This document shows positions 44,023 to 61,900 of a stretch of 64,000 nt of DNA, piece after piece; within the stretch, counting starts at the first letter, position 1, and each line of letters opens with the position of its first letter. A program made the translations under genes and the position numbers. The notes under the pieces were generated by a model that saw only the letters and a program-made list of their open reading frames with translations, searched no databases and was not told the origin of the DNA. Source of the stretch: Bacteroidales bacterium (GTDB lineage: Bacteria; Bacteroidota; Bacteroidia; Bacteroidales; GCA-2748055); assembly GCA_029210725.1 (NCBI GenBank), contig JARGFM010000001.1, positions 1 to 64,000 of the forward strand. Reading direction: 5' to 3'.

Positions 44023-44406
44023 ATGGAGACATTAATCATTGAACACACCGACGACAGTCCCCGGGTCATACTCGACCAGGAGAACCAACAATTCGAGATA
44101 GCCGGAAAATCCCTGCCCGAAGACGTGGTGGATTTTTACCAGCCGGTGCTCGACTGGCTCTCCGCTTACCGGGAGGCACCACTTCCCAAAACCCTGTTTA
44201 ACCTGAAGCTGATCTATTTTAATACGGCCTCGTCAAAAATGATCATGGACATCCTCCTGATATTTGAAGAGATGGTGGAAGAAGGGCATGAAGTGCTGAT
44301 CCGATGGCACTCCCTGCGCTCGGATGAGGATATGCAGGAAGCCGGAAAAGAGTACGACGAGATGATTGAAGCCCCCTTTGAGCACGTCATTTATGATAAA
44401 CCATGA
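44023..44406 (+). CDS. SiaC-like phospho-switch protein (DUF1987)
   Basis: A 127-residue protein of the DUF1987/SiaC family. The conserved segment FNLKLIYFNTASSKMIMDIL contains Thr68 in NTAS, the position phosphorylated by SiaB in Pseudomonas SiaC. In that system unphosphorylated SiaC binds and activates the diguanylate cyclase SiaD. No GGDEF gene is present here; the next gene, overlapping by 4 bp, is an ABC transporter, so the partner of this switch may differ. Confidence 0.9.
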   Translation: METLIIEHTDDSPRVILDQENQQFEIAGKSLPEDVVDFYQPVLDWLSAYREAPLPKTLFNLKLIYFNTASSKMIMDILLIFEEMVEEGHEVLIRWHSLRSDEDMQEAGKEYDEMIEAPFEHVIYDKP

Positions 44407-45938
44407 GTGAAGCGATCCTGAAGGCCCTGATGCAGCTTTTTGCCCTGATCACCAAACAGGACAGGGGCATCAGTCGGCAGGAGATCGATTATGTAAACCG
44501 CTTCCTGGTACAGCAGATCGGGATCGATTCGGCCCCCGAATACCTCCGGCTGTATAAGGACACCGCCACAGAGGGACTCTCCCCAAAGAACCCGCCTGGT
44601 TCAGAACCTGATCCCTCTATCGAACCAGATTCCTTCACAGAACCAGATCCCGGCACAGTCCCAGATCCCCCCATCGAACCAGATCCCCCCACAGAAAAAA
44701 AACTGACCTCTGTTCTGGACTCGGTCCGCGTGCTGAAGCTCTGCAGGCAGATCAGCAAGACCATCAATCAGCGCCAGAAAGTGGTGGTTTTGGTGCGGAT
44801 CCTGGAACTGGTCAATACCGAATACAAGCTGACCGGACAGCGCCTCAGCATTGTCCTGACGGTTTCCGACATTTTCCGCATTCAAAAAGAGGAGTACGAG
44901 ACCATCTTCACCTTTGTAACTTCACAAAACGGGAAGGATCTCAGCCACAGAAACCACCTGGTGAACGACCCGCTCTTTTTCCTGCGGGTACCCTCGGTGG
45001 AACTCTATTTTGTGAAATACAAGGGCAGGGCCGAAGCTTTTCTCAACGGCCTGAGCATGCACACCGGGGTGTGCTATAATTTTGCAAGTGGCTCGACCCT
45101 GCGCTTACCCGTGGGACAACCGGTCTATTACAGCGACATCGCCTCCCGTTTCCAGTCGGGACCGGACCAGGAAAAGATCACTCTGGAAGCCGACCACCTC
45201 TCCTACTTCTTTCCCGGAAAGGTCACCGGGCTGAAGGATATCTCCTTTTCGGCCCGGGAGGGGAACCTGGTGGGAATTATGGGATCCAGCGGAGCCGGTA
45301 AGACCACCCTGCTGAACGTTCTCTCCGGGATGTACCCTCCGGCCTCCGGGCAGGTACGCATCAACAACATCGATCTCTGGAACGATAAGGGCCAGCTGAA
45401 CGGGGTCTCCGGATTTGTTCCCCAGGATGACCTCCTGATTGAGGAACTAAGCGTATTTGAGAACCTCTGGTACAACGCCAAATTCTGCTTTAAACAGCTT
45501 TCCAGCGAAGAGATCCGTGAGAAAGTAATCCACACTCTTACAAGCCTGGGACTCTTAGAGAAAAAAGACCTGAGGGTCGGTTCGGTCTTGAACAAGACCA
45601 TCAGCGGGGTCCAGCGAAAAAGACTCAACATTGCCCTGGAACTGATCCGCGAACCTTCCATCCTCTTCCTGGACGAACCCACCTCGGGGCTTTCCTCGCG
45701 CGACTCCGAAAATGTGATGGACCTGCTCCGGGAACTCACCCTGAAGGGGAAACTGGTCTTTGTGGTCATTCACCAGCCCTCGTCGGAGCTATTTAAAATG
45801 TTCGACCAGGTGGTCATCCTGGATGACGGGGGACGTCTGGCCTATTACGGGAACCCGGTCGAAGCGGTGATCCATTTCCGGAAAGCCGATAAACAGGTGA
45901 ATGCCACCGTGGGCGAATGCCCGTATGCGGCAATGTGA
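44403..45938 (+). CDS. ABC transporter ATPase with N-terminal TerB-like region, ABCG-type (frameshifted end)
   Basis: A 511-residue frame. Residues 1-50 are helical and TerB-like, followed by a Pro/Asp/Glu low-complexity linker (EPDPSIEPDSFTEPDP and on). A middle domain follows (about 100-255), then an ATPase with GIMGSSGAGKTT, TISGVQRKRLNIA and ILFLDEPTSGLSS, as in ABCG/White-type transporters. It ends NATVGECPYAAM; the expected continuation, CGNVNPEQIFNIIE, is read from the next frame at 45917. In relatives the ATPase and permease form one chain. A one-base loss near 45922-45926 explains the split. Confidence 0.85.
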   Translation: MSEAILKALMQLFALITKQDRGISRQEIDYVNRFLVQQIGIDSAPEYLRLYKDTATEGLSPKNPPGSEPDPSIEPDSFTEPDPGTVPDPPIEPDPPTEKKLTSVLDSVRVLKLCRQISKTINQRQKVVVLVRILELVNTEYKLTGQRLSIVLTVSDIFRIQKEEYETIFTFVTSQNGKDLSHRNHLVNDPLFFLRVPSVELYFVKYKGRAEAFLNGLSMHTGVCYNFASGSTLRLPVGQPVYYSDIASRFQSGPDQEKITLEADHLSYFFPGKVTGLKDISFSAREGNLVGIMGSSGAGKTTLLNVLSGMYPPASGQVRINNIDLWNDKGQLNGVSGFVPQDDLLIEELSVFENLWYNAKFCFKQLSSEEIREKVIHTLTSLGLLEKKDLRVGSVLNKTISGVQRKRLNIALELIREPSILFLDEPTSGLSSRDSENVMDLLRELTLKGKLVFVVIHQPSSELFKMFDQVVILDDGGRLAYYGNPVEAVIHFRKADKQVNATVGECPYAAM

Positions 45939-47260
45939 ATCCCGAACAAATCTTCAATATTATCGAAGCCCGGCAGATTGATGAATATGGCAACTATACG
46001 GACCTTCGGAAGGTCTCGCCGGACACCTGGGAAGAGATGTACAAGGAGGCCGGGCCCCGGGAAGCGGCTCCCCCGCCAGACTCCCCGCCCCCGTCGAGCC
46101 TCCATGTCCCGGGATGGTCCGGGCAGCTGTTCAATTACATGAAACGGGATGCCCGCTCTAAGATCAACAACCGCCAGCAATTGTTACTGACCCTGCTGGT
46201 AAGTCCCCTGCTGGCCTTTATCCTGGCTTATATTGTCCGCTATGTGGTCGATCCGACCAGCGGCGACTACATTTTCAGGGAGAACGAAAACATCCCCATC
46301 TACATCTTCATGGCACTGATCGTGGCCCTTTTCCTGGGGCTGATCGTAAGTGCAGAAGAAATCTTCATGGACCGGAAGATCCTGAAAAGGGAGAAGTTCC
46401 TTCACCTGAGCCGCTCCGCCTACCTGCTGGCCAAAATCAAGATCCTGGTGCTCATCTCTGCCATCCAGTCGATCACTTTCGTCCTGGTTGCCAACGGCGT
46501 CCTGGAGATCAGGGGAATGACCTTTGCCTACTGGCTGGCTCTCTTTTCCACGGCGGTCTGTGCCAACCTGATCGGACTGGTCATCTCTTCGGCCTTCTCT
46601 TCGGCGATCGCCATTTATATCGTCATTCCGCTGGTGATGATCCCCATGATGATCCTGAGCGGAGCCCTGTTCTCATTTGACAAGCTGAACCGGAAGATCA
46701 CCTCCATCGACAAGGTTCCCCTGGTGGCAGAGCTTATGCCCACCAAATGGTCGTACGAGGCCCTGATGGTGCAACAGTTCAAGGACAATACCTTCGAGAA
46801 AAATTTTTACGACTACGAGAAGCATATCTCCTACTACAACTTCAAGTCGGCCTACCTCACCCGTTTTTCTGCAGTCAAACGGGAAAAGGAGCGCTACCTG
46901 GGCAAGCTCATGGAGGACCGCCGTGATCTCTATTTCCGGTGGCTGAACCTCTATCACAATGAAAGTGTGGCCGACCAGGTGAAAAAGATCTATGAAAAGA
47001 ACCAGATTATCGAATACGAGGGAGAGCTGTACCAGCAGATCGATCCGGTTTATCTGGACCCCCTCCCCGAAGGGCCCCTGGGGATCCGGTCCCACTTTTT
47101 CGCTCCCCGCAAGTATTTTCTGGGCAGCTATTACGATACCTATAATTTTAACATTTCCTTTATCTGGTTCATGACCCTCCTCCTTTACCTGGCCCTTTAC
47201 TACGACCTCCTGGGGAAACTGATCAGAAGCCCCCTGTTCAAAGGAAAAACAAATTCGTAA
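45917..47260 (+). CDS. ABC-2 type permease domain of the same transporter (frameshifted start)
   Basis: A 447-residue frame with about six membrane helices: near 95-115, 130-150, 185-205, 212-232, 238-262 and 420-440. A loop of about 150 residues precedes the last helix. It begins MPVCGNVNPEQIFNI, which completes the CPxCGxxN motif started at the end of the ATPase frame, so it is best read as the C-terminal half of one ABCG-like protein. Whether it is translated on its own from ATG 45917, which overlaps the upstream frame by 22 nt, is open. Confidence 0.8.
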   Translation: MPVCGNVNPEQIFNIIEARQIDEYGNYTDLRKVSPDTWEEMYKEAGPREAAPPPDSPPPSSLHVPGWSGQLFNYMKRDARSKINNRQQLLLTLLVSPLLAFILAYIVRYVVDPTSGDYIFRENENIPIYIFMALIVALFLGLIVSAEEIFMDRKILKREKFLHLSRSAYLLAKIKILVLISAIQSITFVLVANGVLEIRGMTFAYWLALFSTAVCANLIGLVISSAFSSAIAIYIVIPLVMIPMMILSGALFSFDKLNRKITSIDKVPLVAELMPTKWSYEALMVQQFKDNTFEKNFYDYEKHISYYNFKSAYLTRFSAVKREKERYLGKLMEDRRDLYFRWLNLYHNESVADQVKKIYEKNQIIEYEGELYQQIDPVYLDPLPEGPLGIRSHFFAPRKYFLGSYYDTYNFNISFIWFMTLLLYLALYYDLLGKLIRSPLFKGKTNS

Positions 47261-47374
47261 TCCCTGAAACCCTTTGCAGCGGCAACCGTTTAAAACTTAA
47301 ACAACACCGCTTTTGCAAATTGCTATTTTTATACGTGGAACCAGGCCCATACAGCCTTTCAAAGAACAGATACT

Positions 47375-48274
47375 ATGCTAAAACACTTATTGCTTCTGCT
47401 AACTGCCATTCTTCTCCTGGCTGCCTGTGGCCAGCGCCCGTCGGAGAACCTGGAAGTCAATATGGACGAGGTGGAAACGGGAGAACTCCAGATCTCCTCC
47501 GAAACCATGAATGAGATCATCCAGAACATTGCCTCCCCCATCGAGGTGGCAGCCCTGATCAATGCACTGAATGTTCCCTACTCCATTTCTTACCTGGCCG
47601 ATCCGGAAAGCCTTTCCGCCAACACCACCAGCTTTGAAATGGCCTTCAGCCTGGGGGCCCTCAGCGCCGACCTGGGTTACCTCAACATGTACGAGAAAAC
47701 TGGAACAGCCGTAAATTTCCTCTCCAGCATCAACCGCCTGGCCGAGGCACTTCAAATCGGGCAGTTTTTTGATTTTGCCACCATCAAACGGCTGGCGACC
47801 TCCAGCTCGGACCTGGATTCGCTGATGTTTATCTCGGTGAACAGTTTCAACAACATGGACGATTACCTGCGGGAGACCGACAGAAGCAACCTGTGCGCCC
47901 TGATGATTGCAGGAGTCTGGGTGGAAGGCCTCTACCTGGCCACCCAGGTGGCCCAGAAAAACAGCAACGAGGACCTGAAATCGATGATCGGGGAACAAAA
48001 ACTGATCCTCAACGACCTGCTGCTGATACTGAATAACTACCGGAACGAAGAGACCATCGCCAGATATATCAACGATCTGGAAAAGATCAAAAGTGTCTAC
48101 GACCAGGTAAAGATCACCTACGAAGTGGGCGAGCCGGAAACCATGGAAAAAGATGGCATGCTGATCGTCGTTCAAAGCGAATCGTCCCATGTCTCCATGA
48201 GCGAAGAGACCCTCCGGAAAATCATCGAAGTCACGGAAGAGGTCCGGAACCTGCATATGAACATCAAAGCCTAA
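47375..48274 (+). CDS. Lipoprotein of unknown function, signalling-operon end
   Basis: A 299-residue lipoprotein with lipobox LAAC at about residues 15-18. The mature part is almost all helical, with a NAxNVPYSISYLADPESLSAN-like loop (here ALNVPYSISYLADPE). It belongs to no family I can name, although similar lipoproteins occur in Bacteroidota. It is separated from the permease by 114 nt that contain a possible -7 box TATTTTTA at 47324-47331, so it may have its own promoter. The small exported protein follows 5 nt later. Confidence 0.6.
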   Translation: MLKHLLLLLTAILLLAACGQRPSENLEVNMDEVETGELQISSETMNEIIQNIASPIEVAALINALNVPYSISYLADPESLSANTTSFEMAFSLGALSADLGYLNMYEKTGTAVNFLSSINRLAEALQIGQFFDFATIKRLATSSSDLDSLMFISVNSFNNMDDYLRETDRSNLCALMIAGVWVEGLYLATQVAQKNSNEDLKSMIGEQKLILNDLLLILNNYRNEETIARYINDLEKIKSVYDQVKITYEVGEPETMEKDGMLIVVQSESSHVSMSEETLRKIIEVTEEVRNLHMNIKA

Positions 48275-48279
48275 GCGCC

Positions 48280-48711
48280 ATGAAGATTCTGAAACCACTG
48301 ATAGCCGTTATATTTGTCCTCCTGACCCTCTCCATGGTGCAGAGCGACCGCAAGGAACACGTTCAGGCCTGTGCCGAAAAAGCAGGCGAAGGCGCCATCT
48401 ATCTCAAAGAATTTGTGGTGAGCCTCCCCAAAGCCGAAAAGGACCAGACCCCACCCGTCTACCGCCAGGCCGTCATCCTTCGCGGTAACAACATCTACCG
48501 CTTCAACCTCTGCAGCGACAAGGGCCAGACCATCATCCGCATCTACGACAGCTCCAACATGGTGCTCACCTCCTTCGACACCCGCACCGACCGCGACTTC
48601 AACCCCATCAACTTCCTCTGCCGCAAAACCGGCAAGTACTCCATCGTAATCAACTTCCGTGATGGGAAGGCTGGTGAGGCCGTTGGGATTATGTCTCATG
48701 TGATGAAGTAA
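48280..48711 (+). CDS. Small exported protein, unknown function
   Basis: A 143-residue protein with a signal peptide (about 1-22). The mature part has the segments ILRGNNIYRFNLCSDKG, IIRIYDSSNMVLTSF and CRKTGKYSIVINFRDG, which suggest a small beta-sandwich like pre-peptidase or PPC-type domains. It is the last gene of the operon; after it the base composition turns AT-rich. A role as a partner of the preceding lipoprotein is inference. Confidence 0.6.
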   Translation: MKILKPLIAVIFVLLTLSMVQSDRKEHVQACAEKAGEGAIYLKEFVVSLPKAEKDQTPPVYRQAVILRGNNIYRFNLCSDKGQTIIRIYDSSNMVLTSFDTRTDRDFNPINFLCRKTGKYSIVINFRDGKAGEAVGIMSHVMK

Positions 48712-48899: not shown

Positions 48900-50837
48900 T
48901 CAACACTTGATCCCAATATCAATTTTCCCTTCCCGCTGCCATTTTTGGAGCAGTAAAACACTTATGGGATTAAGGAATACTTTTGTTCCAAATGACATTT
49001 TATTCCTTGATATCTCGCTTTTGTACTGATCAAGCATCCAATGCAGTTTATCGTAATCAACATAGTGAATTTTGTTGTTTTCTCTTCCTTCTTCAATAAG
49101 AAGGCGAAATATGCTCTCATCTTTAACAACTCTATATAATACATAGGGAATAGTGGCACTAGTTTTATCTCTTCGGAGTCTTAACTCATCGAGGAGAATC
49201 CCATTCATTGCTTCGCGAAATAGATGTCTTCCTATCCCATCTTCATAATTATATTTGGATGGCAGCGAGAAAAAAAATTCAATCAATCTAACATCAAGAA
49301 AGGGATATCTATATTCAATGCCATGAGTCTTAGATAACAAATAAGAAGTTTCCAACCTATAAGAAATATTAGGATGCATTAACCTTTTGTACTGTCGTCT
49401 CTTAACATCAGGATCATTGGGTTGGAAGATACGATTGAAAAATCTTCTCTTCATTTTATATTTCTTACGCATTACAGGATTTAAGGCAACTACTTTGAAT
49501 CTAGATCTACGCCAATCATGTTTAAAAAATCTAATTAACCATGGAATATAGATAAAGATGTATTGTTTAATAAGTTGGAAATAAAAACTACCACTTCTTT
49601 TCCTAATCCTACTCCGAATTATATCACGCAATTTTTTAAACTCTCTTTTAGCAGCTAATTCTTGCACAAATCCTGCACCTTGATATGACACTCCTTCATC
49701 ACCCCCAAATCCCGACATTAATACAGTCGCGCCAGTATTTGATAATTTCTTGTATAATATGTCGGACAATAAACCATAACTCTGAACTACCGCTTCTGGT
49801 CTAATTCCTAGATAATTTACTAATGCGTAATATGCTCCGGGTGAATCTTCTCCTGTAATGATGTAATGCTTTTCGATTTGCTTATCTTTTACAAGTTTAG
49901 AGCTGAACACTTTCTCACTTTTAAAACCGACTGGTTTTATTTGCTGATCTTTGTCAAGATCATGCGTAAAAGCATATACGGGAACATCCTGTTTAAAAGT
50001 ATCCTTTATACAAGCAGCTATACCAGATGAATCTAATCCTCCGCTCAGTTCAACCCCAATCGGTCCATCAGAATAGCTCCGCTGCTTGACCGCCTCAATA
50101 AAACGATTCCTAAGTTCATGCACGGCCTCGGCCTTAGAAAAATTTATAAATTCCTTCTGAACCTTCAGATCCCAATAGCGCTTTAGATGAACTGTATCAT
50201 CTTCAATTACCGTTAGCGAATGTGCTGGTGGTAATTTATTGACTCCCTTAAATGCGGATCTATTTTTTTCAGGTATAATGGTGCTTATTGAATCTAAAAT
50301 AAATTGCTCATCAATAGAAAACCTGAATCTAGGTAAGGCTTTGAATGCGTTCGGATCAGAAGAAATAACAAAATATTTACTATCATCAACATAGTATAGA
50401 GGACGACAGCCGAAATGATCTCTAGCACCAAATAACTTATTCCTTTTTTTATCCCATATAGCAAAAGCAAAATCACCTTGAAGATGCATAACACAATCCT
50501 CTCCCCATTTTAGATAGGACATTAGTATGAGTCGGTTATCCGGAATGCCATCGAAATCACTTGTCCCTGCCTTTAATTTTCTCAATAAATCTAATCGATA
50601 ATCAATCCGTGCATCTGCCACTATGATACATTTTGAGCTAACATCTGCATATGGCATTAAATCCTTTCCAAAGGCATTGGTAGTATGAAATACATGGCAC
50701 CCAAAGCCCACATTTTTATCTATCCAGGTATCAGAAAATTGCCAATTTTGGGAGCCCATTTCATTCATTGCATTCTCAACAATTTCTGATACTATCAACT
50801 CCCCACTCCTACTTAGTATAATGAAAATTGAGCTCAT
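48900..50837 (-). CDS. Lasso peptide cyclase (C protein, asparagine-synthetase-like)
   Basis: A 645-residue protein with the asparagine synthetase B layout: an N-terminal glutaminase-like domain (to about 200) and a C-terminal ATP-dependent ligase domain with the PP-loop SGGLDS (265-270) and SGFGGDEGVSYQG. Residue 2 is Ser, not the Cys needed for glutaminase activity, as is usual for lasso peptide cyclases, which adenylate a Glu/Asp side chain and join it to Gly1. The neighbouring B1, B2 and precursor genes settle the assignment. It is transcribed away from the other lasso genes. It is AT-rich compared with the genes to its left. Confidence 0.88.
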   Translation of the reverse strand: MSSIFIILSRSGELIVSEIVENAMNEMGSQNWQFSDTWIDKNVGFGCHVFHTTNAFGKDLMPYADVSSKCIIVADARIDYRLDLLRKLKAGTSDFDGIPDNRLILMSYLKWGEDCVMHLQGDFAFAIWDKKRNKLFGARDHFGCRPLYYVDDSKYFVISSDPNAFKALPRFRFSIDEQFILDSISTIIPEKNRSAFKGVNKLPPAHSLTVIEDDTVHLKRYWDLKVQKEFINFSKAEAVHELRNRFIEAVKQRSYSDGPIGVELSGGLDSSGIAACIKDTFKQDVPVYAFTHDLDKDQQIKPVGFKSEKVFSSKLVKDKQIEKHYIITGEDSPGAYYALVNYLGIRPEAVVQSYGLLSDILYKKLSNTGATVLMSGFGGDEGVSYQGAGFVQELAAKREFKKLRDIIRSRIRKRSGSFYFQLIKQYIFIYIPWLIRFFKHDWRRSRFKVVALNPVMRKKYKMKRRFFNRIFQPNDPDVKRRQYKRLMHPNISYRLETSYLLSKTHGIEYRYPFLDVRLIEFFFSLPSKYNYEDGIGRHLFREAMNGILLDELRLRRDKTSATIPYVLYRVVKDESIFRLLIEEGRENNKIHYVDYDKLHWMLDQYKSEISRNKMSFGTKVFLNPISVLLLQKWQREGKIDIGIKC

Positions 50838-50842
50838 AGAAA

Positions 50843-50850
50843 CAAATGTA
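50843..50850 (-). promoter_or_regulatory. -7 box of the cyclase gene
   Basis: TACATTTG on the minus strand, a full TAnnTTTG match 5 nt before the ATG. An ATTG about 22 nt upstream could be the -33 box. The short distance implies a leaderless or nearly leaderless transcript, or a start codon further inside. Confidence 0.45.
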
Positions 50851-50909
50851 ATAGAATCTTAAACAACCCTGTCAATCTATTTTTTTCATGAAGACACAAC
50901 GTTTATAAG

Positions 50910-50917
50910 TATCTTTG
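50910..50917 (+). promoter_or_regulatory. -7 box of the lasso kinase-sulfotransferase genes
   Basis: TATCTTTG, a full TAnnTTTG match, 13 nt before the TTG start. The -33 region is weak (TTTTTTC). Confidence 0.45.
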
Positions 50918-50930
50918 TAAAAAACTAAGT

Positions 50931-51830
50931 TTGAAAACAAAGACCTACAGGGTAAATGGATTAAATCTGAGCTCTGAAATTGAACTCCCTGAACTTGTTA
51001 GTTCTAACGTTCAGAAACCCGATGTTTGGATAAGATTTGGGTCCGTTCCAGATCATTTACCTGAAGCGGCTGGATCGGGTGTATTATACGAAGCCTCAAA
51101 GGATGATTTCCTTTTCAAATTAAATACTGTTGCGAAGTACCGAGTACAAAATGGAAAATACATTACAATTGAACCTCTTGAGACAACTGATCAAAAAGAG
51201 ATTCGCCTTTTTCTCTTTGCATCAACAATGGGAGCTCTATTGCATCAAAGGGGTATGCTAGCTATACATGGAAGTTGTGTAGCCAAAGAAAACAAAGGAA
51301 TCATATTCACAGGAATTTCATCTGCTGGTAAATCCACTATCGCAGCTGGCTTTTACATAAAAGGTTATTCGGTTATTACTGATGATATTGCCGTTATTGA
51401 TAATTCAGAAAAAAAACACTTTATCCATCCTGGTATTCCTCACCTAAAACTATGGCAAGATGTTGTTTACTATATGAATGAAGAAAGTAACTTGGAAAGA
51501 GTACGATCTGAGCTAGAAAAATATAGGAAACCCATACCTGCCCTAAAACCCTCAATCCATGTCCCTCTGGAAAAAATAATCTTGCTCACTACAAAAAATA
51601 CTCCAGGATTTCATTTTGAGGAAGTCTTTGGGGCGGATAAATTCCAAATATTACGTCAAAATACTTATAGGGTACAATTCCTGGAAATGCTAAATCAACT
51701 TGAGATACATTTCAAAAATATATCAAGTCTTGCTTCATCTATACCTCTGTATAAAGTTGAAAGACCATCTTCCCCTTTACAGGTTATGGAATTGACAGAT
51801 TACATTGAAAAGCATATACTTCACATTTAA
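50931..51830 (+). CDS. HPr-kinase-like lasso peptide kinase
   Basis: A 299-residue protein with an HPr kinase/phosphorylase-like ATPase domain: P-loop GISSAGKST (128-136), then VITDDIAVID (148-157). The start is TTG at 50931. Such kinases occur in some lasso clusters; the paeninodin kinase and its relatives phosphorylate the C-terminal Ser side chain of the precursor. The precursor here does end in Ser (codon at 53566-53568). Its stop overlaps the sulfotransferase ATG. Confidence 0.82.
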   Translation: MKTKTYRVNGLNLSSEIELPELVSSNVQKPDVWIRFGSVPDHLPEAAGSGVLYEASKDDFLFKLNTVAKYRVQNGKYITIEPLETTDQKEIRLFLFASTMGALLHQRGMLAIHGSCVAKENKGIIFTGISSAGKSTIAAGFYIKGYSVITDDIAVIDNSEKKHFIHPGIPHLKLWQDVVYYMNEESNLERVRSELEKYRKPIPALKPSIHVPLEKIILLTTKNTPGFHFEEVFGADKFQILRQNTYRVQFLEMLNQLEIHFKNISSLASSIPLYKVERPSSPLQVMELTDYIEKHILHI

Positions 51831-52705
51831 TGCTGGTTAGAAAAAAAAATATAATTTGGCTAGCATCCTATCCAAAATCAGGGAATACCTGGTTCAGATT
51901 GTTTTTGAGCTACCTTTACTCTGATTCAGAAGATGACATAAATATCAATCAATTAGACCTAGCCCCTATCGCAAGTAGCAGGAGTTTAATTGATCAATAT
52001 CTAGGAATTAATACCTCTAATCTTACAATGAATGAGATTGAAATCATCAGACCAAAAGTATATAGAAAGATATCTGATGAAAGTGAGAATGAAGTCTTTT
52101 TGAAAACACACGATGCTTGGAAGTTAAATTCTGATGGCGAATCCATGTTCCCACCTGATGTTACAAAGGGGGTGCTATATTTTGTTCGAAATCCACTTGA
52201 TGTGGCAGTCTCTTTTGCTTTTCATAGTAATACGGATTTTGCTAAAACAATCCAGCATATGAATGATGATACTTTTGGATTTTGTATGGAAGAGAATAGG
52301 CTTTTTAATCAGCTCTCTCAGCAAATGTTCTCTTGGTCCGGACATGTAAATTCTTGGGTTCATCATTCAAAATTGCCAGTCCATGTCATGCGTTATGAGG
52401 ATATGCTACATAAGCCCTTTTTGACATTTACGAAGGCGCTTGATTTTTTGAATATTAAATACTCAAAAACTAAAGTCAATAATGCATTATATAATTGTTC
52501 ATTTGATAAACTTACATTCCAAGAAGAGAAATTTGGTTTCAAAGAGAAAACTATTAATTCCCTAAAATTCTTTAGAAGTGGTACAATGAATGACTGGCAA
52601 AAACACTTAAAAAAACATGAAGTGAATCAAATCATTAAAATGCATCGATCTACAATGGAATCCTTTGGATATTTAAATGATATCCAATCATATATATACA
52701 AATAA
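51830..52705 (+). CDS. Sulfotransferase (PAPS-dependent), candidate lasso tailoring enzyme
   Basis: A 291-residue cytosolic sulfotransferase. The 5'-phosphosulfate loop is YPKSGNTWFR (14-23), the 3'-phosphate motif includes RNPLDVAVSFAFHS, and the conserved C-terminal FRSGTMNDWQKHL carries the R/KxGxxGDWKxxF-like motif. The ATG shares a base with the kinase stop, so it is translationally coupled to it. By position it is expected to sulfate the lasso peptide, for example Tyr12 or a Ser of the core. That is inference; sulfation of lasso peptides is not something I know to be established. Confidence 0.85.
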   Translation: MLVRKKNIIWLASYPKSGNTWFRLFLSYLYSDSEDDININQLDLAPIASSRSLIDQYLGINTSNLTMNEIEIIRPKVYRKISDESENEVFLKTHDAWKLNSDGESMFPPDVTKGVLYFVRNPLDVAVSFAFHSNTDFAKTIQHMNDDTFGFCMEENRLFNQLSQQMFSWSGHVNSWVHHSKLPVHVMRYEDMLHKPFLTFTKALDFLNIKYSKTKVNNALYNCSFDKLTFQEEKFGFKEKTINSLKFFRSGTMNDWQKHLKKHEVNQIIKMHRSTMESFGYLNDIQSYIYK

Positions 52706-52718
52706 AACAAATTTTGAC

Positions 52719-52726
52719 TAAATTTG
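52719..52726 (+). promoter_or_regulatory. -7 box before the B1-B2-A genes
   Basis: TAAATTTG, a full TAnnTTTG match, 29 nt before the B1 start and after the sulfotransferase stop. No -33 match is visible. It could allow B1-B2-A expression apart from the tailoring genes. Confidence 0.4.
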
Positions 52727-52755
52727 TATAACACTTAAAAAATATTGTAACTTGA

Positions 52756-53046
52756 ATGAGAATAGAGATCAAAAGTGAATCTGTATTGAAGAGAAATCCA
52801 CAACAATTGTTTAGCGATATTGATGGAGAAGTTGTAATGTTGAGTATAAATAATGGTGAGTACTACAATTTGGATCGTATAAGCACTCAAATTTGGTATT
52901 TGCTTGAGAACCCCATTAACTTTAATAATCTAATAGGTGATTTGATGAACATTTATGAGGTAAGTAAGGATACATGCATTAAGGACACAAAGTACTTACT
53001 TGAGGAATTCATACAAAAAGGACTTATTGAGATAATAGATGAATAA
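52756..53046 (+). CDS. Lasso peptide RRE / PqqD-like leader-binding protein (B1)
   Basis: A 96-residue protein of the PqqD fold: three beta strands (VVMLSINNGEYYNLD is the diagnostic strand pair) and three helices. Such stand-alone RiPP recognition elements bind the precursor leader and hand it to the B2 protease. It overlaps the B2 gene by 8 bp. PQQ synthesis is excluded by context. Confidence 0.88.
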   Translation: MRIEIKSESVLKRNPQQLFSDIDGEVVMLSINNGEYYNLDRISTQIWYLLENPINFNNLIGDLMNIYEVSKDTCIKDTKYLLEEFIQKGLIEIIDE

Positions 53047-53440
53047 ATTCTTTAAAGCTGTGCGCTATTTTATTCGTTCTAATTGGAACGAAAAAAGAGA
53101 GGTTTTTTTGATCATTATGATGTCAGCTAAAATCGCTTTGATGGTCAACTTTATCCCTCTTCGACACTATTATTCTAAATATTTTACCACAACCCAACAA
53201 ATGCACCAAGATTTGCAACTGTATAAGAGAAAAATTTGTCTTGTGAAAAAAATATTGAACCATCTCCCCTGGAAAGTATCTTGCCTTACAGAAAGCCTAA
53301 TTGTAAAACGCTATATTTATAAGCAATTTGGAGTAGATTTAATTATTTCAGTTGGCATTAGTAAATCAAGTGAACTAAAGGCGCACGCTTGGTACGGTAA
53401 AACAGTTACAAATGAATTTGTTAATATAGTAATACCATGA
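53039..53440 (+). CDS. Lasso peptide leader protease (B2, transglutaminase-like)
   Basis: A 133-residue protein of the lasso B2 family (transglutaminase-like cysteine protease). Cys82 in VSCLTESLIVKRY and His117 in KAHAWYG are the catalytic pair. The usual third residue, an Asp in the HAWVEVDG-type segment, is not obvious here (HAWYGKTVTNE). The N-terminal half is helical and hydrophobic near residues 22-40. The enzyme would remove the precursor leader. Its stop overlaps the precursor ATG (ATGA). Confidence 0.86.
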   Translation: MNKFFKAVRYFIRSNWNEKREVFLIIMMSAKIALMVNFIPLRHYYSKYFTTTQQMHQDLQLYKRKICLVKKILNHLPWKVSCLTESLIVKRYIYKQFGVDLIISVGISKSSELKAHAWYGKTVTNEFVNIVIP

Positions 53441-53571
53441 TAAAAAAGGAATTTAGTAAAAAGCTTTGGACTAAACCTAGAATTAAAAGCCTGAAATTTA
53501 ACAAAACTATGGGCGGAATGGTGGGAGGCATATCTGAAAGTCATTATGCTTCGCCTGGGGAGCCATCTTAA
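53437..53571 (+). CDS. Lasso peptide precursor (A)
   Basis: A 44-residue peptide gene, too short for most gene callers. The leader, residues 1-25, has the RRE-binding pattern (W-x-x-P-x-x-x-L in LWTKPRIKSL) and ends NKTM, with Thr at -2, the hallmark of lasso leaders. The predicted core is GGMVGGISESHYASPGEPS (residues 26-44): Gly1 and Glu9 would form a nine-residue macrolactam ring, leaving a ten-residue tail HY...PS with a C-terminal Ser. The ATG overlaps the B2 stop. Alternative cleavage after the next Gly would give an eight-residue ring but moves Thr to -3. Bulky plugs His11 and Tyr12 are right behind the ring. Confidence 0.88.
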   Translation: MIKKEFSKKLWTKPRIKSLKFNKTMGGMVGGISESHYASPGEPS

Positions 53572-53581
53572 ATATAGCATT

Positions 53582-55771
53582 ATGAAAAACTTCATCATTT
53601 CAGTTCTTTTGGCAGTTACTTCATTCACAAATGTCCTTTCTCAATCTTGGGTCACTTCTAGTCAAATATCAAGTACAAATGACATAGTCGTTATTCAATC
53701 AACAATTAATAACGTTGGAGAGGTAATTGTTTTTGGATATTTTCTTGGTACATTGACTTCTAATAACGGTCAATCAATAGACTCTTATGGAGATCGCGAT
53801 TATTTTCTGATTAAGTTTAACACAGATGGAGGAGTTGTATGGATGAAGGCAATCGGAAGTGAACTAAGAGAATACCTTTCTGGTGGAGTTGGGATTGATC
53901 AAGATAACAATATTTATGTTTCAGGAGGCTTTCAAAGCTATTTGAAATACTCGGATTCTGATTCGATTCAGAGCACAGGGGTATATGATGCATTTATTGT
54001 TAAGTATGACGATTCTGGTAATGCCCTTTGGGCTAGGAATTGTGGGGCTGGAGCATTATTTCAAGGAACAACAGCCTTAGAAGTAAGCCCAACAGGTAAT
54101 TTACTAATATCAGGAATATTTATAGATAGTATTAATATACAAAATATTTATTCTTTATATACAGGCGACACTAGTGCTGATTATTTCTATGCAGAACTTA
54201 GCCCCATTGATGGGACAGTTCAATGGATTGAGCATATTCGTTCATTAAATCTGAAAAATGGGGCAATTTGGGATATTGCTAGAAGCCCGGAATCTTATGC
54301 TATGGCTGGATTCTTTTATGATTCCATTGGTTTCACAACGGATACCATAGCTCCATATAATGATAATCAGGATGTTCACCTCATTTCTACAGATCATTTA
54401 GGAAATATAAACTGGGTTCGAAAAATCAGTGGTAATGCTAGAGATTTAAGCTATTCTGTTGTTTTTGATGATGAAAATAATATTTACATAGCAGGGTATT
54501 ATAATAGCGATACCTTAAGCTTTTTCACATCTTCCGAAGATAGTGTGACAGTTTACGAAAATAATGGAACCTATGATCTTTTTATTGCTAAATATCTATC
54601 AAGTGGAAGTCTTGATTGGTATAAAGTGATGGGAAGTAACGGAGAAGATAAAGTTTTTGATATAGAGTTTTTTGATGATAAAATATATCTATCCGGATAT
54701 TTTTCTGACACCTTAAATTGGGGAGGAATTAATCTTATTTCGGAAGGTATCGGTGATAGAGATATGTTTACGGGAGCATTAGATAAGGATGGGAATTATA
54801 GGGATGCCAATTCGTACCATGGAAGGAATAATAGTTCGGATGAAGCCTGGAGCATATTTAAAAACGTAGATGAATTATTTACTGTAATGAGATCAAACTC
54901 TGATATGATGATACTTGGAGATAGTATCTATACTGCCGATAAAACAACATTTGGGATGTATATAGGGGTAATTGGCTGCCTCCCCATCTCTGTCGACCAA
55001 ACCATTCCGAGAAATGTTGCAGGTTGCTATGGCGATTCAACCGGATCCATACAGGTAGTGGCTTCAGGTGGATTTGGATCACCGTGGCAATATTCCATCG
55101 ATAACGGATTAAACTACTCAACCGTAGCTTATTATGATGAGCTTCCGGCAGGGGACTACCAGGTGGTGGTAATTGATGCTGAAAACTGTGCGGAAGTAGG
55201 TCCTTTGGTTACACTGACACAGCCTGATACGCTGCTTGCACAGTTTGTTTCGAAGGATGATATTCTTCATCATACAGACTGGAGGGGGGATGTGGATATT
55301 ACGGATGGATCGCTGGTGGTTTCGGCTACCGGGGGAACGGGTCCGTATACCTTTCAATTAATCCCCGGCGGGAGTCCCCAGGCACTGGGCACCTACACGT
55401 TTACCTATGCAGATTCGGGTAAGTATGTGGTTGCAGTGAACGACATTAATGGCTGTGGTCCATCGGAAACGGATACCATCGAGATCAATGTAATACGCAC
55501 CAGTGCTGTGGGAGTGGATGATTTTGAAGGGGCCGGGGTAAAAATTTATCCCAATCCTACGGCTGGGATCCTGACCCTTGAGATGCCCTTTGAGGGTGGT
55601 GTGTGTGACATGGAGGTGCTGAATATGACCGGGCAGGTGGTTCTGAAACGCCAGGTTTACCCGTCCGGAGGTATCATCAACGAAACCCTGGACCTGTCGG
55701 ACAAGGCCAAAGGCCTGTACATGCTAAAGATCAACGGAGAAGCTCTCCGTTCGGCCATTATGGTGAAATAA
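53582..55771 (+). CDS. T9SS-exported protein with SBBP-type beta-propeller repeats and SprB-like repeat
   Basis: A 729-residue secreted protein; ATG 53582 starts a signal peptide (MKNFIISVLLAVTSFTNVLS) and the longer upstream frame overlaps the precursor gene. Residues about 25-450 hold repeated SBBP-like blades (DNNIYVSGGF, ENNIYIAGYY, DDKIYLSGYF). An SprB-like repeat (CYGDSTGSIQVVASGGFGSP, about 490-545) and a second Ig-like repeat follow, then a T9SS type A sorting domain (KIYPNPTAGILTLEM). The gene starts 10 nt after the lasso precursor stop. The first 1.4 kb is AT-rich like the lasso genes; the last 0.8 kb, from about 54970, has host-like composition. Confidence 0.82.
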   Translation: MKNFIISVLLAVTSFTNVLSQSWVTSSQISSTNDIVVIQSTINNVGEVIVFGYFLGTLTSNNGQSIDSYGDRDYFLIKFNTDGGVVWMKAIGSELREYLSGGVGIDQDNNIYVSGGFQSYLKYSDSDSIQSTGVYDAFIVKYDDSGNALWARNCGAGALFQGTTALEVSPTGNLLISGIFIDSINIQNIYSLYTGDTSADYFYAELSPIDGTVQWIEHIRSLNLKNGAIWDIARSPESYAMAGFFYDSIGFTTDTIAPYNDNQDVHLISTDHLGNINWVRKISGNARDLSYSVVFDDENNIYIAGYYNSDTLSFFTSSEDSVTVYENNGTYDLFIAKYLSSGSLDWYKVMGSNGEDKVFDIEFFDDKIYLSGYFSDTLNWGGINLISEGIGDRDMFTGALDKDGNYRDANSYHGRNNSSDEAWSIFKNVDELFTVMRSNSDMMILGDSIYTADKTTFGMYIGVIGCLPISVDQTIPRNVAGCYGDSTGSIQVVASGGFGSPWQYSIDNGLNYSTVAYYDELPAGDYQVVVIDAENCAEVGPLVTLTQPDTLLAQFVSKDDILHHTDWRGDVDITDGSLVVSATGGTGPYTFQLIPGGSPQALGTYTFTYADSGKYVVAVNDINGCGPSETDTIEINVIRTSAVGVDDFEGAGVKIYPNPTAGILTLEMPFEGGVCDMEVLNMTGQVVLKRQVYPSGGIINETLDLSDKAKGLYMLKINGEALRSAIMVK

Positions 55772-58300: not shown

Positions 58301-58932
58301 TCCTCCCTGGGCAGACCGCTGCTGGGAATGGCCTTCATACGGTAACCCTCCTCCTTTAAAAACCCGAGGGTCCGGGGCAGGGCGTAATACAGGTTGTCTG
58401 CCGCTTTATCCGAATCGTGAAATACAATGATGGAGCCTGGTTTGACATGGCGGGTCACATTCTGAAGAACACGCTCCCCGCTGAGTCCGCTGTTATAGTC
58501 AATACTCAGCACATCCCACATGATAATATCATATTGCTCGAGCACCGCCTTTACCTGTCCCGGAAAGATCCGGCCATAAGGCGGACGGAACAATCTGGAA
58601 TCGATCATGTCCGAAGCCAGGCGGATATCGTCCATATAGCGCCTGACGCTGGAACGGAACCCCTTCAGGTGACTGTAGCTATGGTTGCCCACTGAATGGC
58701 CGCCGGCGAGGATCTGCCTGTAGAGTCCGGGGTGCTTATCCACGTTGCGGCCCAGGCAGAAAAAGGTCCCCTTTGCCCCGGCTTCATCCAGGCGGTCCAG
58801 CACCCAGGGGGTTACCACGGGAGTCGGACCATCGTCAAAAGTCAGGTACACCTCCCGGTGGTCGCCGGTAAGGTCCCAGGTCATCCGGTGCAAGGCACGG
58901 GTAAGCAAAGAAGGTGGCCTGACTATCAGCAT
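58285..58932 (-). CDS. Polysaccharide deacetylase (NodB homology domain)
   Basis: A 215-residue NodB-type deacetylase. All motifs are present: TFDDGPTP (metal and base Asp pair), HSVGNHSYSHL (metal His pair), RPPYG, WDVLSIDYN and the final IIVFHDS. A possible short N-terminal helix is present but no signal peptide. It would remove N- or O-acetyl groups from an envelope polysaccharide or peptidoglycan. The DUF2723 protein gene lies 32 bp away on its 5' side, same strand. Confidence 0.93.
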   Translation of the reverse strand: MLIVRPPSLLTRALHRMTWDLTGDHREVYLTFDDGPTPVVTPWVLDRLDEAGAKGTFFCLGRNVDKHPGLYRQILAGGHSVGNHSYSHLKGFRSSVRRYMDDIRLASDMIDSRLFRPPYGRIFPGQVKAVLEQYDIIMWDVLSIDYNSGLSGERVLQNVTRHVKPGSIIVFHDSDKAADNLYYALPRTLGFLKEEGYRMKAIPSSGLPREDHTIH

Positions 58933-58964
58933 ATTACTCTTTTAACGTAAAGAGTTTTAAAATG

Positions 58965-61900
58965 TTACCTGAAGAGCCTGTCGTACTCCTGTCCGTACCT
59001 GGAAAGCTTTTCTTCCAGGCGGCGCGAGGCTTCTATCTCGCCATATCCCAGACACATGCTGCGAAGCTGGTTGATATCCCTGACGGCAGCCAGGAAATCG
59101 TTGCCGGTCTTGGCAAAGCGGTACTTATTTTTCATGGACAACAGGACGTAGTAGTCGAGCTCCGATTCAAGCTTCTGCTCATACTTCTCAACCATCCTAT
59201 TGGCAGTAGCCGTATCTCCCACCCCAAAATATCCCTGGATGATGGGAGTGATCCCGGCATTGTAAGGGACATTTTCTTCCGGCATCCGTTGCATGCAACG
59301 GTCCAGAACTTCTTTGGCCTCGTCCGGCCTTCCCTCGTCCGTGAGGGCGCCGGCCAGGACCGAGAAGGCATAGCGGTAGTGAATGGTCATCCTCAGGTTG
59401 TTCTCATCCATATAAATCCCCGGGGTATCCAGTCCGCCCCAGTCAAACTCCTCCATCAGCTTTCGGTACATGTCATCCGTATCCACCTTGCCCAGGTAGT
59501 TCAGGTTACCGAACTCCACGGGGGCTACCCGGAGAGCCAGTCCTTCACGCACAAAGTAGGGATCCAGGTTCAGATAGTTGTCCGACGGTACGGTGGTGGA
59601 GAAATAGATGGGACGCTCCCAGTCGTTGGTTCCCAGCAGATCCATTACGGTAAGCAAATTCTTGTAAAGGACCTGGTCGGAAATACTGAAGCGTACCTGA
59701 TCCACCTGGTTCTCCCGGAATTTTTCGGGAACCACCCAGGGAGCCAGAGAGGCAGAATCGGCCGGAATCACAAATTTTTTGGCCGGAATAAAGTATTGTC
59801 CCTGCTGGAAGCGGGGATCATCGCCCAGCATAAAGGCAAAAGCCTCTTTCAGGGGGGCATAGTCGGCATCGATCCGCCTGATCATCGACTCCATCCGGGC
59901 AGTAAGCGCGTTCATCTCTCCCTTATCGAGCTGAATACGGCTGGCAATCTCCTCCGAATTAAACGTGCGCATATAACTGTAAAGGCGCAGGGGGTCCATA
60001 TTGTTTTCAAGCGCTTCTATAGCCTTGTAATCATTGGCATGATTCTGTTGCAGCAGGGAGCCCTCCAAGACTTCCAGCAGATCCGAATATATCCCCATGG
60101 TCTTCTCTTCATAGCTCTCCCTGTTGGCCTCATACTTTTCCTTGATCAGAACCCCGGCATTGTCGACCAGGTAGGCAAAGTCCCGTTCCCCCTGGACATA
60201 TTGCTCCCGGGTCATCGCAATGGGCAAGGCTTCAGTGTCGTAGAAGGTCTGCTTCATCTGCTCTATATACCAGTCCGCGGTCAGATAACTCAGGTTCACA
60301 ACGCGCACATCGGTACGCACCCCCTCCACCTCCTGGAGGTACCAGAGCGGGAAAGTATCGTTATCCCCGTTGGTGAACATGATCCCTCCCGGAAGACAGG
60401 AATTCAGGAAATTCCGTGCAAAGGCAGGGGCTGTATACCGGTCCGAACGATCGTGATCGTCCCAGTTCTCTTTGGCCATGATCCCGGGCACCAGGATCAG
60501 CGATGCGAGAACCAGCGCCGCCGCGCTTACCGCGGAGCGCTTTTTTCCGGAAGCCCACTCAATGAGTCCGGCCACTCCAATCCCGATCCAGATGGCAAAG
60601 GCATAAAACGAGGCCGCATAGGCATAATCCCGTTCCCTGGGCTGGATGGGATACTGGTTCAGATAAACCAGGATGGCAAATCCGGTCAGGACAAACAGCA
60701 AACCTACCACCCAGAAGTCTTTCTGGTGTTTCTTGTAATGGAAAAAAGCTCCGGCCAGTCCGAGCAGGAGCGGCAAAAGATAATATTTATTATTCCCCTT
60801 GTTATCCACAATATAGGACGGCAGATTCTCCTGGGGTCCCAGGCGGGCCTGGTCGATAAACTTGATCCCGCTGATCCAGTTCCCCTTGGTCAGCTCGCCG
60901 TGTCCCTGAATATCGTTCTGCCTCCCTGCAAAGTTCCACATGAAATAGCGCAGGTACATATAACCCACCTGGTACCGGAAGAAAAAGCGCATATTCTGTC
61001 CAAAACTGGGTCTTCCTATGGCCCTGTTGCGATCGTAGCTGTAGGTCCCAAACTGGTTCATCATCGGGTTTCCTTCGGCATCCCGTTGCACATCATAAAG
61101 ATCCGCCTCGCTCATTCCACCCCAGTAGATATACTCATTGGCGTGCCTGTCCTGGGTGCTCCACATCCTGGGGAACACCCCCTTGGCCGATTTATCATAA
61201 ACATACTCCCGGTTCTTATCCACCTGGAAATATTTATCCTCGCCCTTGTAATAGCTGGGTTTACTCTCTTTTATACTGGTGGGCCTGTGATTGAAATAGG
61301 CCCCATAAACCAGGGGATTGTCCCCATACTGGTCCCTGTTCAGATAATCGAGCAGTGAAAACACGGTATCGGGGTTACTTTCATCCAGGGGCGTATTGGC
61401 AGCAGAACGGATCACAATAATCGCATAGGAAGAATAACCGATAACGATCACGAACAGACCAAGCAGGACGGTGTTCCAGAGAACCTTTCCCTTCTTGTGG
61501 GTCAGGTAAATCCCGGCTATCAGTCCGCTAAAAAGCAACAGGACATATACCACAACCCCCGAATTGAAGGGCAATCCCAAACCATTTACAAACAGCAGCT
61601 CAAATTTACCGGCAATGGCGGTCAGGCCGGGGATAAGCATATAGTTAATCACACCCAGTATGCCTACCGAAACAGCCATGGCTGCAAGCACTCCTTTTGC
61701 AGTGGGGGTGTATTTCCTGAAATAGTAGACCATGATAATGGCCGGAATGGCCAGCAGGTTCAGCAGGTGCACCCCGATGGAGAGCCCCATCAGATAGGCA
61801 ATCAGGATCAGCCAGCGGTTGGCTCCGGGTTCGTCAGCCACGTTTTCCCACTTAAGGATGGCCCAGAATACCACGGCCGTAAAGAGCGAAGAGGTCGAGT

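What the first reader, a model, noticed from the sequence alone, without database searches (positions are those of the whole stretch)
48900..53571. Lasso peptide gene cluster with a non-standard gene set
Cyclase C, kinase, sulfotransferase, RRE B1, protease B2 and precursor A form a compact cluster, with C divergent and A last. Bacteroidota lasso clusters are little studied, and the combination of a lasso kinase and a sulfotransferase is not one I know to be described. This is the best candidate for a new system in the window.
Basis: partly seen in the sequence, partly recalled or inferred. Interest (0 to 1): 0.9.

Follow-up and report, generated by a model that had tools for sequence, protein, structure and literature searches.

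The report
Phospho-sulfo lasso cluster with surface propeller
A Bacteroidales bacterium carries genes to make a small knotted peptide that is probably tagged with both phosphate and sulfate, next to a gene for a secreted propeller-shaped surface protein that travels with such peptides in many related bacteria.

Summary
48,900-53,571 encodes a lasso set: C (divergent), kinase K, sulfotransferase ST, RRE B1, protease B2 and a 44-aa precursor with predicted core GGMVGGISESHYASPGEPS (G1-E9 ring, C-terminal Ser). No exporter D was found in the window. A is not last: ten bases on starts a type IX-secreted SBBP beta-propeller protein (53,582-55,771).

New here: (1) K-ST is a widespread lasso module: K is in 75 of 80 named ST loci from many phyla, directly upstream in 65; in this order ST occurs in 27 of 295 genomes, all lasso-bearing. 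(2) Sulfate-activation genes lie in 10 of 116 such loci, three as sulfurylase-APS kinase fusions within or at the edge of the cluster. (3) 39 of 47 K+ST cores end in Ser; 18 lack Tyr, so Tyr is not the general sulfation site. (4) An SBBP gene abuts C or A in 19 of 37 lasso genomes of the order.

I predict a C-terminally phosphorylated, sulfated lasso peptide with a dedicated surface partner. The chemistry and the partner's role are inferred.

The parts
48900..50837 (-). lasso cyclase C (macrolactam synthetase, 645 aa)
   Evidence: NF033535 358 bits vs TIGR01536 225 bits, both below cut-off; SGGLDS at aa 265, starts MSS, no Cys at residue 2 (4 of 72 lasso-locus C ORFs do have Cys there); groups with lasso-locus C proteins, own AsnB pair apart, support 0.999
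50838..50930 (.). divergent intergenic region, probable promoters for C and K (weak)
   Evidence: TAnnTTTG (Bacteroidota -7 element, recalled) at 50910-50917(+) and 50843-50850(-); in the whole window the motif is not significantly enriched (40 vs mean 31.2, 11 of 100 shuffles reach it)
50931..51830 (+). HPr-kinase-like lasso kinase K (299 aa, TTG start)
   Evidence: PF07475 and TIGR04352, both below cut-off; His113, Lys134, Asp151, Asp152 present, which I equate with the His-Lys-Asp-Asp motif of lasso kinases reported in PMC9266682
51830..52705 (+). PAPS-dependent sulfotransferase ST (291 aa)
   Evidence: PF00685 3e-25; SYPKSGNTW, K92/H94 and R120-N121-P122 invariant across 24 homologues; nearest solved relatives by profile TEG12/Teg14
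52756..53046 (+). RRE / PqqD-like B1 (96 aa)
   Evidence: NF033536 83.4 bits, above cut-off 80
53039..53440 (+). leader protease B2 (133 aa)
   Evidence: NF033537 35.7 bits, above cut-off 33; Cys82 and His116 present; no conserved third catalytic residue seen in the aligned set
53437..53571 (+). precursor A (44 aa): 25-aa leader with W-x-x-P and Thr at -2; predicted core GGMVGGISESHYASPGEPS (codons 53512-53568)
   Evidence: ORF; same leader logic and C-terminal Ser in homologous clusters
53582..55771 (+). SBBP beta-propeller protein with SprB repeats and T9SS C-terminal sorting domain (729 aa), proposed partner of the peptide
   Evidence: PF13573, PF18962, TIGR04183; AF2 model, propeller about aa 29-464, block pLDDT mostly 80-95; SBBP beside C/A in 19 of 37 lasso genomes

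Best explanation
A lasso peptide operon with two tailoring steps and a dedicated surface protein. B1 binds the leader (W-x-x-P motif) and presents A to B2, which cuts after ...NKTM. C activates Glu9 with ATP and joins it to Gly1, threading the tail. K phosphorylates the C-terminal Ser19, probably on the linear precursor as PadeK does. ST then transfers sulfate from PAPS; since the C-terminal Ser is the only hydroxyl residue shared by most cores, the sulfate most likely goes onto the modified tail end (the same terminus, or a group built on it by the NTP_transf_5 enzyme present in many such clusters) rather than onto Tyr. The peptide works with the co-encoded propeller protein, exported through the type IX system to the cell surface, which binds, displays or senses it. 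Shown here by sequence: gene content, intact motifs, recurrence of K-ST, the C-terminal Ser, A/C-SBBP adjacency, and SprA in the genome. Inferred: every chemical step, the sulfation site, and the role of SBBP.
For: HMM hits; catalytic motifs. K-ST pairing: K in 75 of 80 named ST loci, directly upstream in 65 of 80; by coordinates K and ST lie together in 24 of 27 ST genomes of the order. ST is confined to lasso genomes there: 26 of 27 have B2 at the search threshold, the 27th (G247) a divergent B2. Sulfate activation: APS-kinase homologues in 10 of 116 loci and in none of 20 SBBP-centred loci or the window; six are longer fusions, Sat-CysC in L092, L117, L124, L136 and CysNC-like in L057, L102; in L092, L117 and L124 the fusion gene touches D, B1 or N (40, 73). 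The own genome has an APS kinase tail to tail with its only match to the L033 NTP_transf_5 protein. Cores: 39 of 47 end in Ser, Tyr absent in 18 of 47; 1230 of 13615 small ORFs in these loci (9%) end in Ser (76). SBBP: the best propeller matches of the 8 best-scoring of 295 genomes all lie within 4 kb of lasso genes; 6 of 20 further SBBP loci lie beside C, 4 of them with a precursor-like ORF (49); T9SS tails in 14 of 14 scanned; SprA in the own genome; no other propeller match in the own genome.
Against: No chemistry is shown. C and K score below curated cut-offs. A third catalytic residue of B2 is not recognisable. 8 of 47 cores do not end in Ser, and two of three K-only cores end in Val (57). 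Sulfation of Tyr12, Ser8, Ser10 or Ser14 is not excluded. SBBP proteins are common (100 of 295 genomes at E<=1e-10, 43) and 14 of the 20 further SBBP loci fetched show no lasso C (49); the link is positional only. The window lacks the N gene that 18 of 36 loci of the order have. The 80 named loci were chosen by ST similarity and the 36 by K similarity, so presence counts are biased towards those genes; a few named loci are the same contigs as loci of the order set (L080/L033, L095/L039, L089/L040).
Confidence: 0.6

Rival explanations
1. The lasso pathway is as described, but the SBBP/T9SS protein is an unrelated neighbour; only the K-ST lasso cluster is the unit.
For: SBBP proteins are abundant in the order (100 of 295 genomes); the link is by position only; 14 of 20 further SBBP loci have no lasso C beside them; several lasso clusters lack SBBP (e.g. 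L057, L060, L061, L062, which have an ABC exporter instead).
Against: 19 of 37 lasso genomes of the order have SBBP beside C/A; in G053 and G254 C-A-SBBP stays together on one contig while K, ST and B2 are on three others; the best-scoring homologues are lasso-linked; 10-base gap after A in the window.
Confidence: 0.25
2. The sulfotransferase sulfates Tyr (Tyr12 here) or an internal Ser/Thr of the core, independently of the kinase site.
For: 29 of 47 K+ST cores contain Tyr, many in the tail; the nearest solved STs by profile are TEG12/Teg14, glycopeptide-antibiotic sulfotransferases (function recalled).
Against: 18 of 47 K+ST cores have no Tyr; two cores (L142, L144) have only one hydroxyl residue besides the C-terminal Ser; K and ST are adjacent genes in 65 of 80 loci.
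Confidence: 0.25
3. The ST serves another substrate, such as a surface polysaccharide or lipid, and merely sits in the cluster.
For: PF00685 enzymes sulfate many small molecules (general knowledge); tandem STs of the same family occur without recognised lasso genes in the fetched stretches L148, L149, L151.
Against: In this order the family is found only in lasso genomes (27 of 27); K-ST adjacency spans many phyla.
Confidence: 0.08
4. Degenerate or non-lasso RiPP: C does not form the macrolactam, or the small ORF is not the precursor.
For: C below the lasso cut-off; third catalytic residue of B2 not recognisable; A matches no family.
Against: C is closer to lasso C than to AsnB; precursors with acceptor Glu/Asp at 7-9 and Thr at -2 in sister clusters; overlapping, intact reading frames.
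Confidence: 0.06

Closest known systems
Paeninodin-type kinase-tailored lasso clusters (PadeK, ThcoK, SyanK)
   Same: A, B1, B2, C and an HPr-kinase homologue; precursor with C-terminal Ser; His-Lys-Asp-Asp set (as described in PMC8498205 and PMC9266682, passages seen)
   Different: a PF00685 sulfotransferase directly behind K; no D in the window; SBBP/T9SS gene after A; Bacteroidales. No direct sequence comparison with PadeK was made
Pseudomycoidin (PsmK + PsmN nucleotidyltransferase)
   Same: K and, in 18 of 36 loci of this order, an NTP_transf_5 neighbour; equating it with PsmN rests on the annotation 'nucleotidyltransferase' in PMC8498205/PMC9266682, not on a sequence comparison
   Different: N is not in the window (a homologue is on another contig); ST present
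Gram-positive lasso clusters with HPr kinase and sulfotransferase (Letzel 2014; Zhu 2016c as cited)
   Same: the K + ST combination itself
   Different: known as gene observations only in what I saw; homology of those STs to this family not tested here
SBBP beta-propeller proteins (CylK; leptospiral LipL53 family)
   Same: repeat family and fold
   Different: T9SS tail and SprB repeats, lasso linkage; no enzymatic domain found by Pfam or NCBIfam

Membership tests
Lasso peptide gene cluster | RRE (B1) | tested here: met
   NF033536 83.4 bits, cut-off 80
Lasso peptide gene cluster | B2 leader protease | tested here: met
   NF033537 35.7 bits, cut-off 33; Cys82/His116 present, third residue unclear
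Lasso peptide gene cluster | asparagine-synthetase-like cyclase of the lasso branch | tested here: met
   358 vs 225 bits (below the curated 525); tree with 72 lasso-locus C proteins and two own AsnB-like proteins
Lasso peptide gene cluster | precursor with Thr at -2, small residue 1, Glu/Asp at 7-9 | tested here: met
   NKT-M / G1 ... E9
Lasso peptide gene cluster | threaded [1]rotaxane product | not testable with these tools
   needs MS/NMR
Lasso kinase (PadeK/ThcoK type) | His-Lys-Asp-Asp catalytic set and substrate with C-terminal Ser | tested here: met
   H113, K134, D151, D152; core ends in Ser; residue mapping is mine, no alignment with PadeK itself
Lasso kinase (PadeK/ThcoK type) | phosphorylates the C-terminal Ser | not testable with these tools
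   needs assay
PAPS sulfotransferase (PF00685) | 5'-PSB and 3'-PB motifs, catalytic His (motif roles recalled) | tested here: met
   SYPKSGNTW, RNP and K-x-H invariant in 24 sequences
Canonical lasso cluster with ABC exporter D | D gene in the cluster | tested here: not met
   best match in the window is an ABCG-like ATPase (pair at 44403-47260, 1.6 kb from C) with 101 bits to a D profile built from five Bacteroidales D genes; the best D genes of other loci score 371-450, some weaker ones down to about 130; rest of the genome not searched
T9SS cargo (SBBP protein) | C-terminal sorting domain and T9SS in the genome | tested here: met
   TIGR04183 33.9 bits, cut-off 23; SprA 2598 bits

The most novel reading that the evidence does not exclude
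A Bacteroidota lineage of lasso peptides that carry both phosphate and sulfate at the tail end and that work as a two-part system with a co-encoded, T9SS-exported beta-propeller protein (receptor, carrier or display platform) in place of the usual dedicated ABC exporter; this would be both the first sulfated lasso peptide and the first lasso peptide paired with a type IX-secreted protein.
Probability: 0.35. Interest if true: 0.85.

Novelty: new variant of a known kind. Interest (0 to 1): 0.62.

Why it matters
The biological role of lasso kinases and of the sulfotransferases seen beside some of them is open. This survey gives a testable rule set: ST goes with K, sulfate activation can be cluster-borne, the shared acceptor residue is the C-terminal Ser, and many Bacteroidales peptides have a co-encoded surface propeller. 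It names strains with K-ST lasso loci (Acidiluteibacter ferrifornacis S-15, Sediminibacterium ginsengisoli DSM 22335) where it could be tested, and offers a candidate peptide-protein pair in a phylum whose lasso peptides are called underexplored (PMC7533575, passage seen).

Tried and rejected
Recent horizontal transfer as the reason for the low GC: weakened, because the same chromosomal neighbours (polysaccharide deacetylase and TMEM260-like gene at 58312-62339) recur near lasso genes in other families of the order: the deacetylase cluster in 11 and the TMEM260 cluster in 7 of 36 loci. C as an asparagine synthetase: rejected. Tyr as the general sulfation site: weakened. The ABCG-like pair at 44403-47260 as lasso exporter: not favoured; its genes and two small ones recur near the lasso locus in L033, L039 and L046, which looks like chromosomal synteny. 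Padloc scan of C, K, ST and SBBP: no match. Kinase-only scan of genome contigs: nothing confirmed. Sigma-70 and terminator scan: no more than shuffles. TAnnTTTG: 40 in the window vs 31 expected, reached by 11 of 100 shuffles. PDB profile search with K found HPr kinases and other P-loop proteins. A clean D-versus-SBBP exclusion: only partly usable, because the D profile is crude and the split may be phylogenetic.

Rows dropped before counts. The 47 K+ST cores come from a strict regular expression (Thr at -2, Gly/Ala/Ser/Cys at 1, Glu/Asp at 7-9) that did not ask for Ser; duplicates were removed, three ORFs inside longer frames were dropped, and precursor-like ORFs with other spacing were left out, some ending in Ser (L060, L110, L154) and some not (L062 Leu, L104 Phe, L109 Pro). 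In multi-cluster loci K/ST flags are per locus. Alignment A3 left out L081 and the cut L093; L081 was scanned apart and has a T9SS tail. Of the SBBP hits outside the K loci I fetched 20, not all, so 19 of 37 is a lower bound; L157 (a precursor-like ORF beside SBBP, no C) is not counted; in L161 my ORF call found no SBBP frame. Three of the 19 SBBP genes are cut by a contig end (L042, L047, L050; the L042 match is weak, 5.5e-5).
Full report
What is there. The six genes of the finding are real and intact. Profile searches name them lasso cyclase C, HPr-kinase-like protein, PF00685 sulfotransferase, lasso PqqD-type B1 and lasso B2; B1, B2 and ST pass curated cut-offs, C and K do not. C scores 358 bits with the lasso cyclase model (cut-off 525) and 225 with asparagine synthase (cut-off 267). 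In a tree of 72 lasso-locus C proteins (window included) with two AsnB-like proteins of the same genome, those two (both starting MCG) form their own clade (0.999), and window C sits in a four-member clade (0.989) with C of L032, L033 and L080, the last two being the same contig. K keeps His113, Lys134, Asp151 and Asp152, which I equate with the catalytic His-Lys-Asp-Asp set of lasso kinases (PMC9266682, passages seen). ST keeps SYPKSGNTW, K-x-H and RNP, invariant in 24 relatives. B2 keeps Cys82 and His116; a third catalytic residue is not recognisable in the aligned set.

The precursor. A is MIKKEFSKKLWTKPRIKSLKFNKTM / GGMVGGISESHYASPGEPS, with Thr at -2, Gly1 and Glu9 (a nine-residue ring) and a C-terminal Ser. 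ORFs of the same build occur in homologous clusters. With a filter that did not ask for Ser, 39 of 47 cores from loci with K and ST end in Ser (others: Pro 2; Cys, Leu, Phe, Asn, Thr, Asp 1 each), against 1230 of 13615 (9%) of all small ORFs in these loci. Of three cores from loci with K but no ST, one ends in Ser and two in Val. Tyr is absent from 18 of 47. Two cores, L142 AGGPGITDAGFLS and L144 GGGPIGPVENQFYNS, have a single other hydroxyl residue. So no internal hydroxyl is general, and the one widely shared acceptor is the residue that PadeK, ThcoK and SyanK phosphorylate (PMC8498205, PMC9266682, passages seen).

How widespread. In 295 genomes of the same order, lasso B2 is in 36. A strong kinase match (E 2e-14 or better) is in 34 of those 36, not in G006 and G161, and also in G247, which has a B2 too divergent for the family model. 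The ST profile hits 27 genomes, 26 of the 36 plus G247, with no match between 1.6e-33 and the 1e-20 limit; at most 8 candidates per genome were scored. By coordinates K and ST lie together in 24 of the 27; in G033, G053 and G254 they are on different contigs, and in the K loci of these three (L043, L041, L045) the fetched stretch on K's downstream side holds no ST, so a contig break next to K is not the reason. K is in 75 of these 80 loci, directly upstream of ST in 65; B1 is in 64, C in 56, B2 in 53, an NTP_transf_5 gene in 43, and a D-type match in 27, some weak. The five without K are L093 (contig cut), L122, L148, L149 and L151. All sets were chosen by ST or K similarity and a few loci are the same contig twice (L033/L080, L039/L095, L040/L089), so they describe the module rather than lasso clusters at large.

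Sulfate supply. APS-kinase homologues lie in 10 of 116 loci; the window and 20 SBBP-centred loci, searched at the same time, have none. Eight of the ten were scanned with Pfam: L092, L117, L124 and L136 encode ATP sulfurylase-APS kinase fusions, L057 and L102 CysNC-like fusions, L118 and L135 plain APS kinases; L138 and L147 were not scanned. In L117 and L124 the fusion gene ends 4 bases from N, in L092 it overlaps the end of D, in L136 it ends 7 bases from a weak D match, and in L057 it ends 26 bases from C; in L118, L135 and L147 the gene is 2-4 kb from the nearest lasso gene. Nine of the ten are among the named loci, which total 1.32 Mb; at one or two such genes per genome of about 4 Mb (my assumption) fewer than one would be expected by chance. 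In the window's own genome the only match to the L033 NTP_transf_5 protein is on contig 17, tail to tail with an APS kinase.

The unexpected partner. Ten bases after A starts a 729-aa protein whose AF2 model is a beta-propeller over about aa 29-464 (seven blades by my reading of the strand pattern; closest solved fold CylK), followed by SprB repeats and a T9SS sorting domain. The genome has SprA (2598 bits). The propeller part has no other match in this genome; the other 11 matches of the protein start at aa 463 or beyond. Of 295 genomes, 100 have an SBBP match at E<=1e-10, but the best match of each of the eight best-scoring genomes lies within 4 kb of lasso genes. I fetched 20 of the remaining hits: six lie next to a lasso C (L158, L164, L167, L170, L171, L176), in four of them with a precursor-like ORF; 14 do not. 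In G254 (L158) and G053 (L171) K, ST and B2 are on three other contigs; in G047 and G262 a contig break could explain the separation. In all, 19 of 37 lasso genomes of the order have SBBP beside C or A. All 14 lasso-linked SBBP proteins scanned carry a T9SS tail of one type or the other. At a 100-bit threshold SBBP and D occur together only in L080, L095 and L039, where the D match (103-108 bits) is the ABCG-like ATPase. Phylogeny may explain part of this split.

Genome context. The 32-41% GC stretch looks like an island, yet neighbouring genes of the window (polysaccharide deacetylase, TMEM260-like) recur near lasso genes in other families, which points to an old chromosomal locus rather than a recent arrival.

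Literature. Six phrases for sulfated lasso peptides gave 0 papers; lasso peptide with type IX secretion gave 0; lasso peptide with sulfotransferase gave 15, of which passages of two were read. In a June 2026 review (PMC13352647, passages) 'sulf' occurs three times, never for a sulfated lasso peptide. A 2020 rumen survey (PMC7533575, passages) found complete clusters only in Firmicutes, many with kinases. The library holds open-licence papers only; Zhu 2016c itself was not held.

Judgement. Lasso cluster: about 0.93. K acts on the C-terminal Ser: about 0.85. ST is a PAPS-dependent enzyme acting on the peptide or its adduct: about 0.8, with the site unresolved.

Noticed in passing
L076 (G000 contig 17), 5008-9461: the genome's only match to the L033 NTP_transf_5 protein abuts an APS kinase gene tail to tail, with an inositol-monophosphatase-family (CysQ-like) gene nearby
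   Followed up: partly
G033, G053, G254 (loci L043, L157; L041, L171; L045, L158): lasso genes K, ST, B2 (and, in G053 and G254, C-A-SBBP) lie on different contigs, and K is followed by several kb without ST: a split pathway
   Followed up: partly
L060 6965-9946; L062 5186-8186: K-ST-K gene order; the first kinase of L060 has lost the catalytic His and the second Asp, so one copy may be a non-catalytic partner
   Followed up: no
L107 5292-6421; L111 13659-14937: runs of four different precursor-like ORFs in one cluster
   Followed up: no
L148, L149, L151 (two Sneathiella strains and an alphaproteobacterial MAG): tandem copies of the same ST family with no recognised lasso genes in the fetched stretch: possible other substrate
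   Followed up: no
L063 9362-9508; L064 6268-6417: kinase-bearing clusters without ST whose predicted cores end in Val, not Ser, so what the kinase modifies there is unclear
   Followed up: no
L042 357-536; L047 882-1040; L049 9533-9685: K+ST clusters whose cores end in Cys, Leu and Phe: exceptions to the C-terminal Ser rule
   Followed up: no
window 44403-48711: ABCG-like transporter pair and two small genes that recur near the lasso locus in L033, L039 and L046
   Followed up: partly
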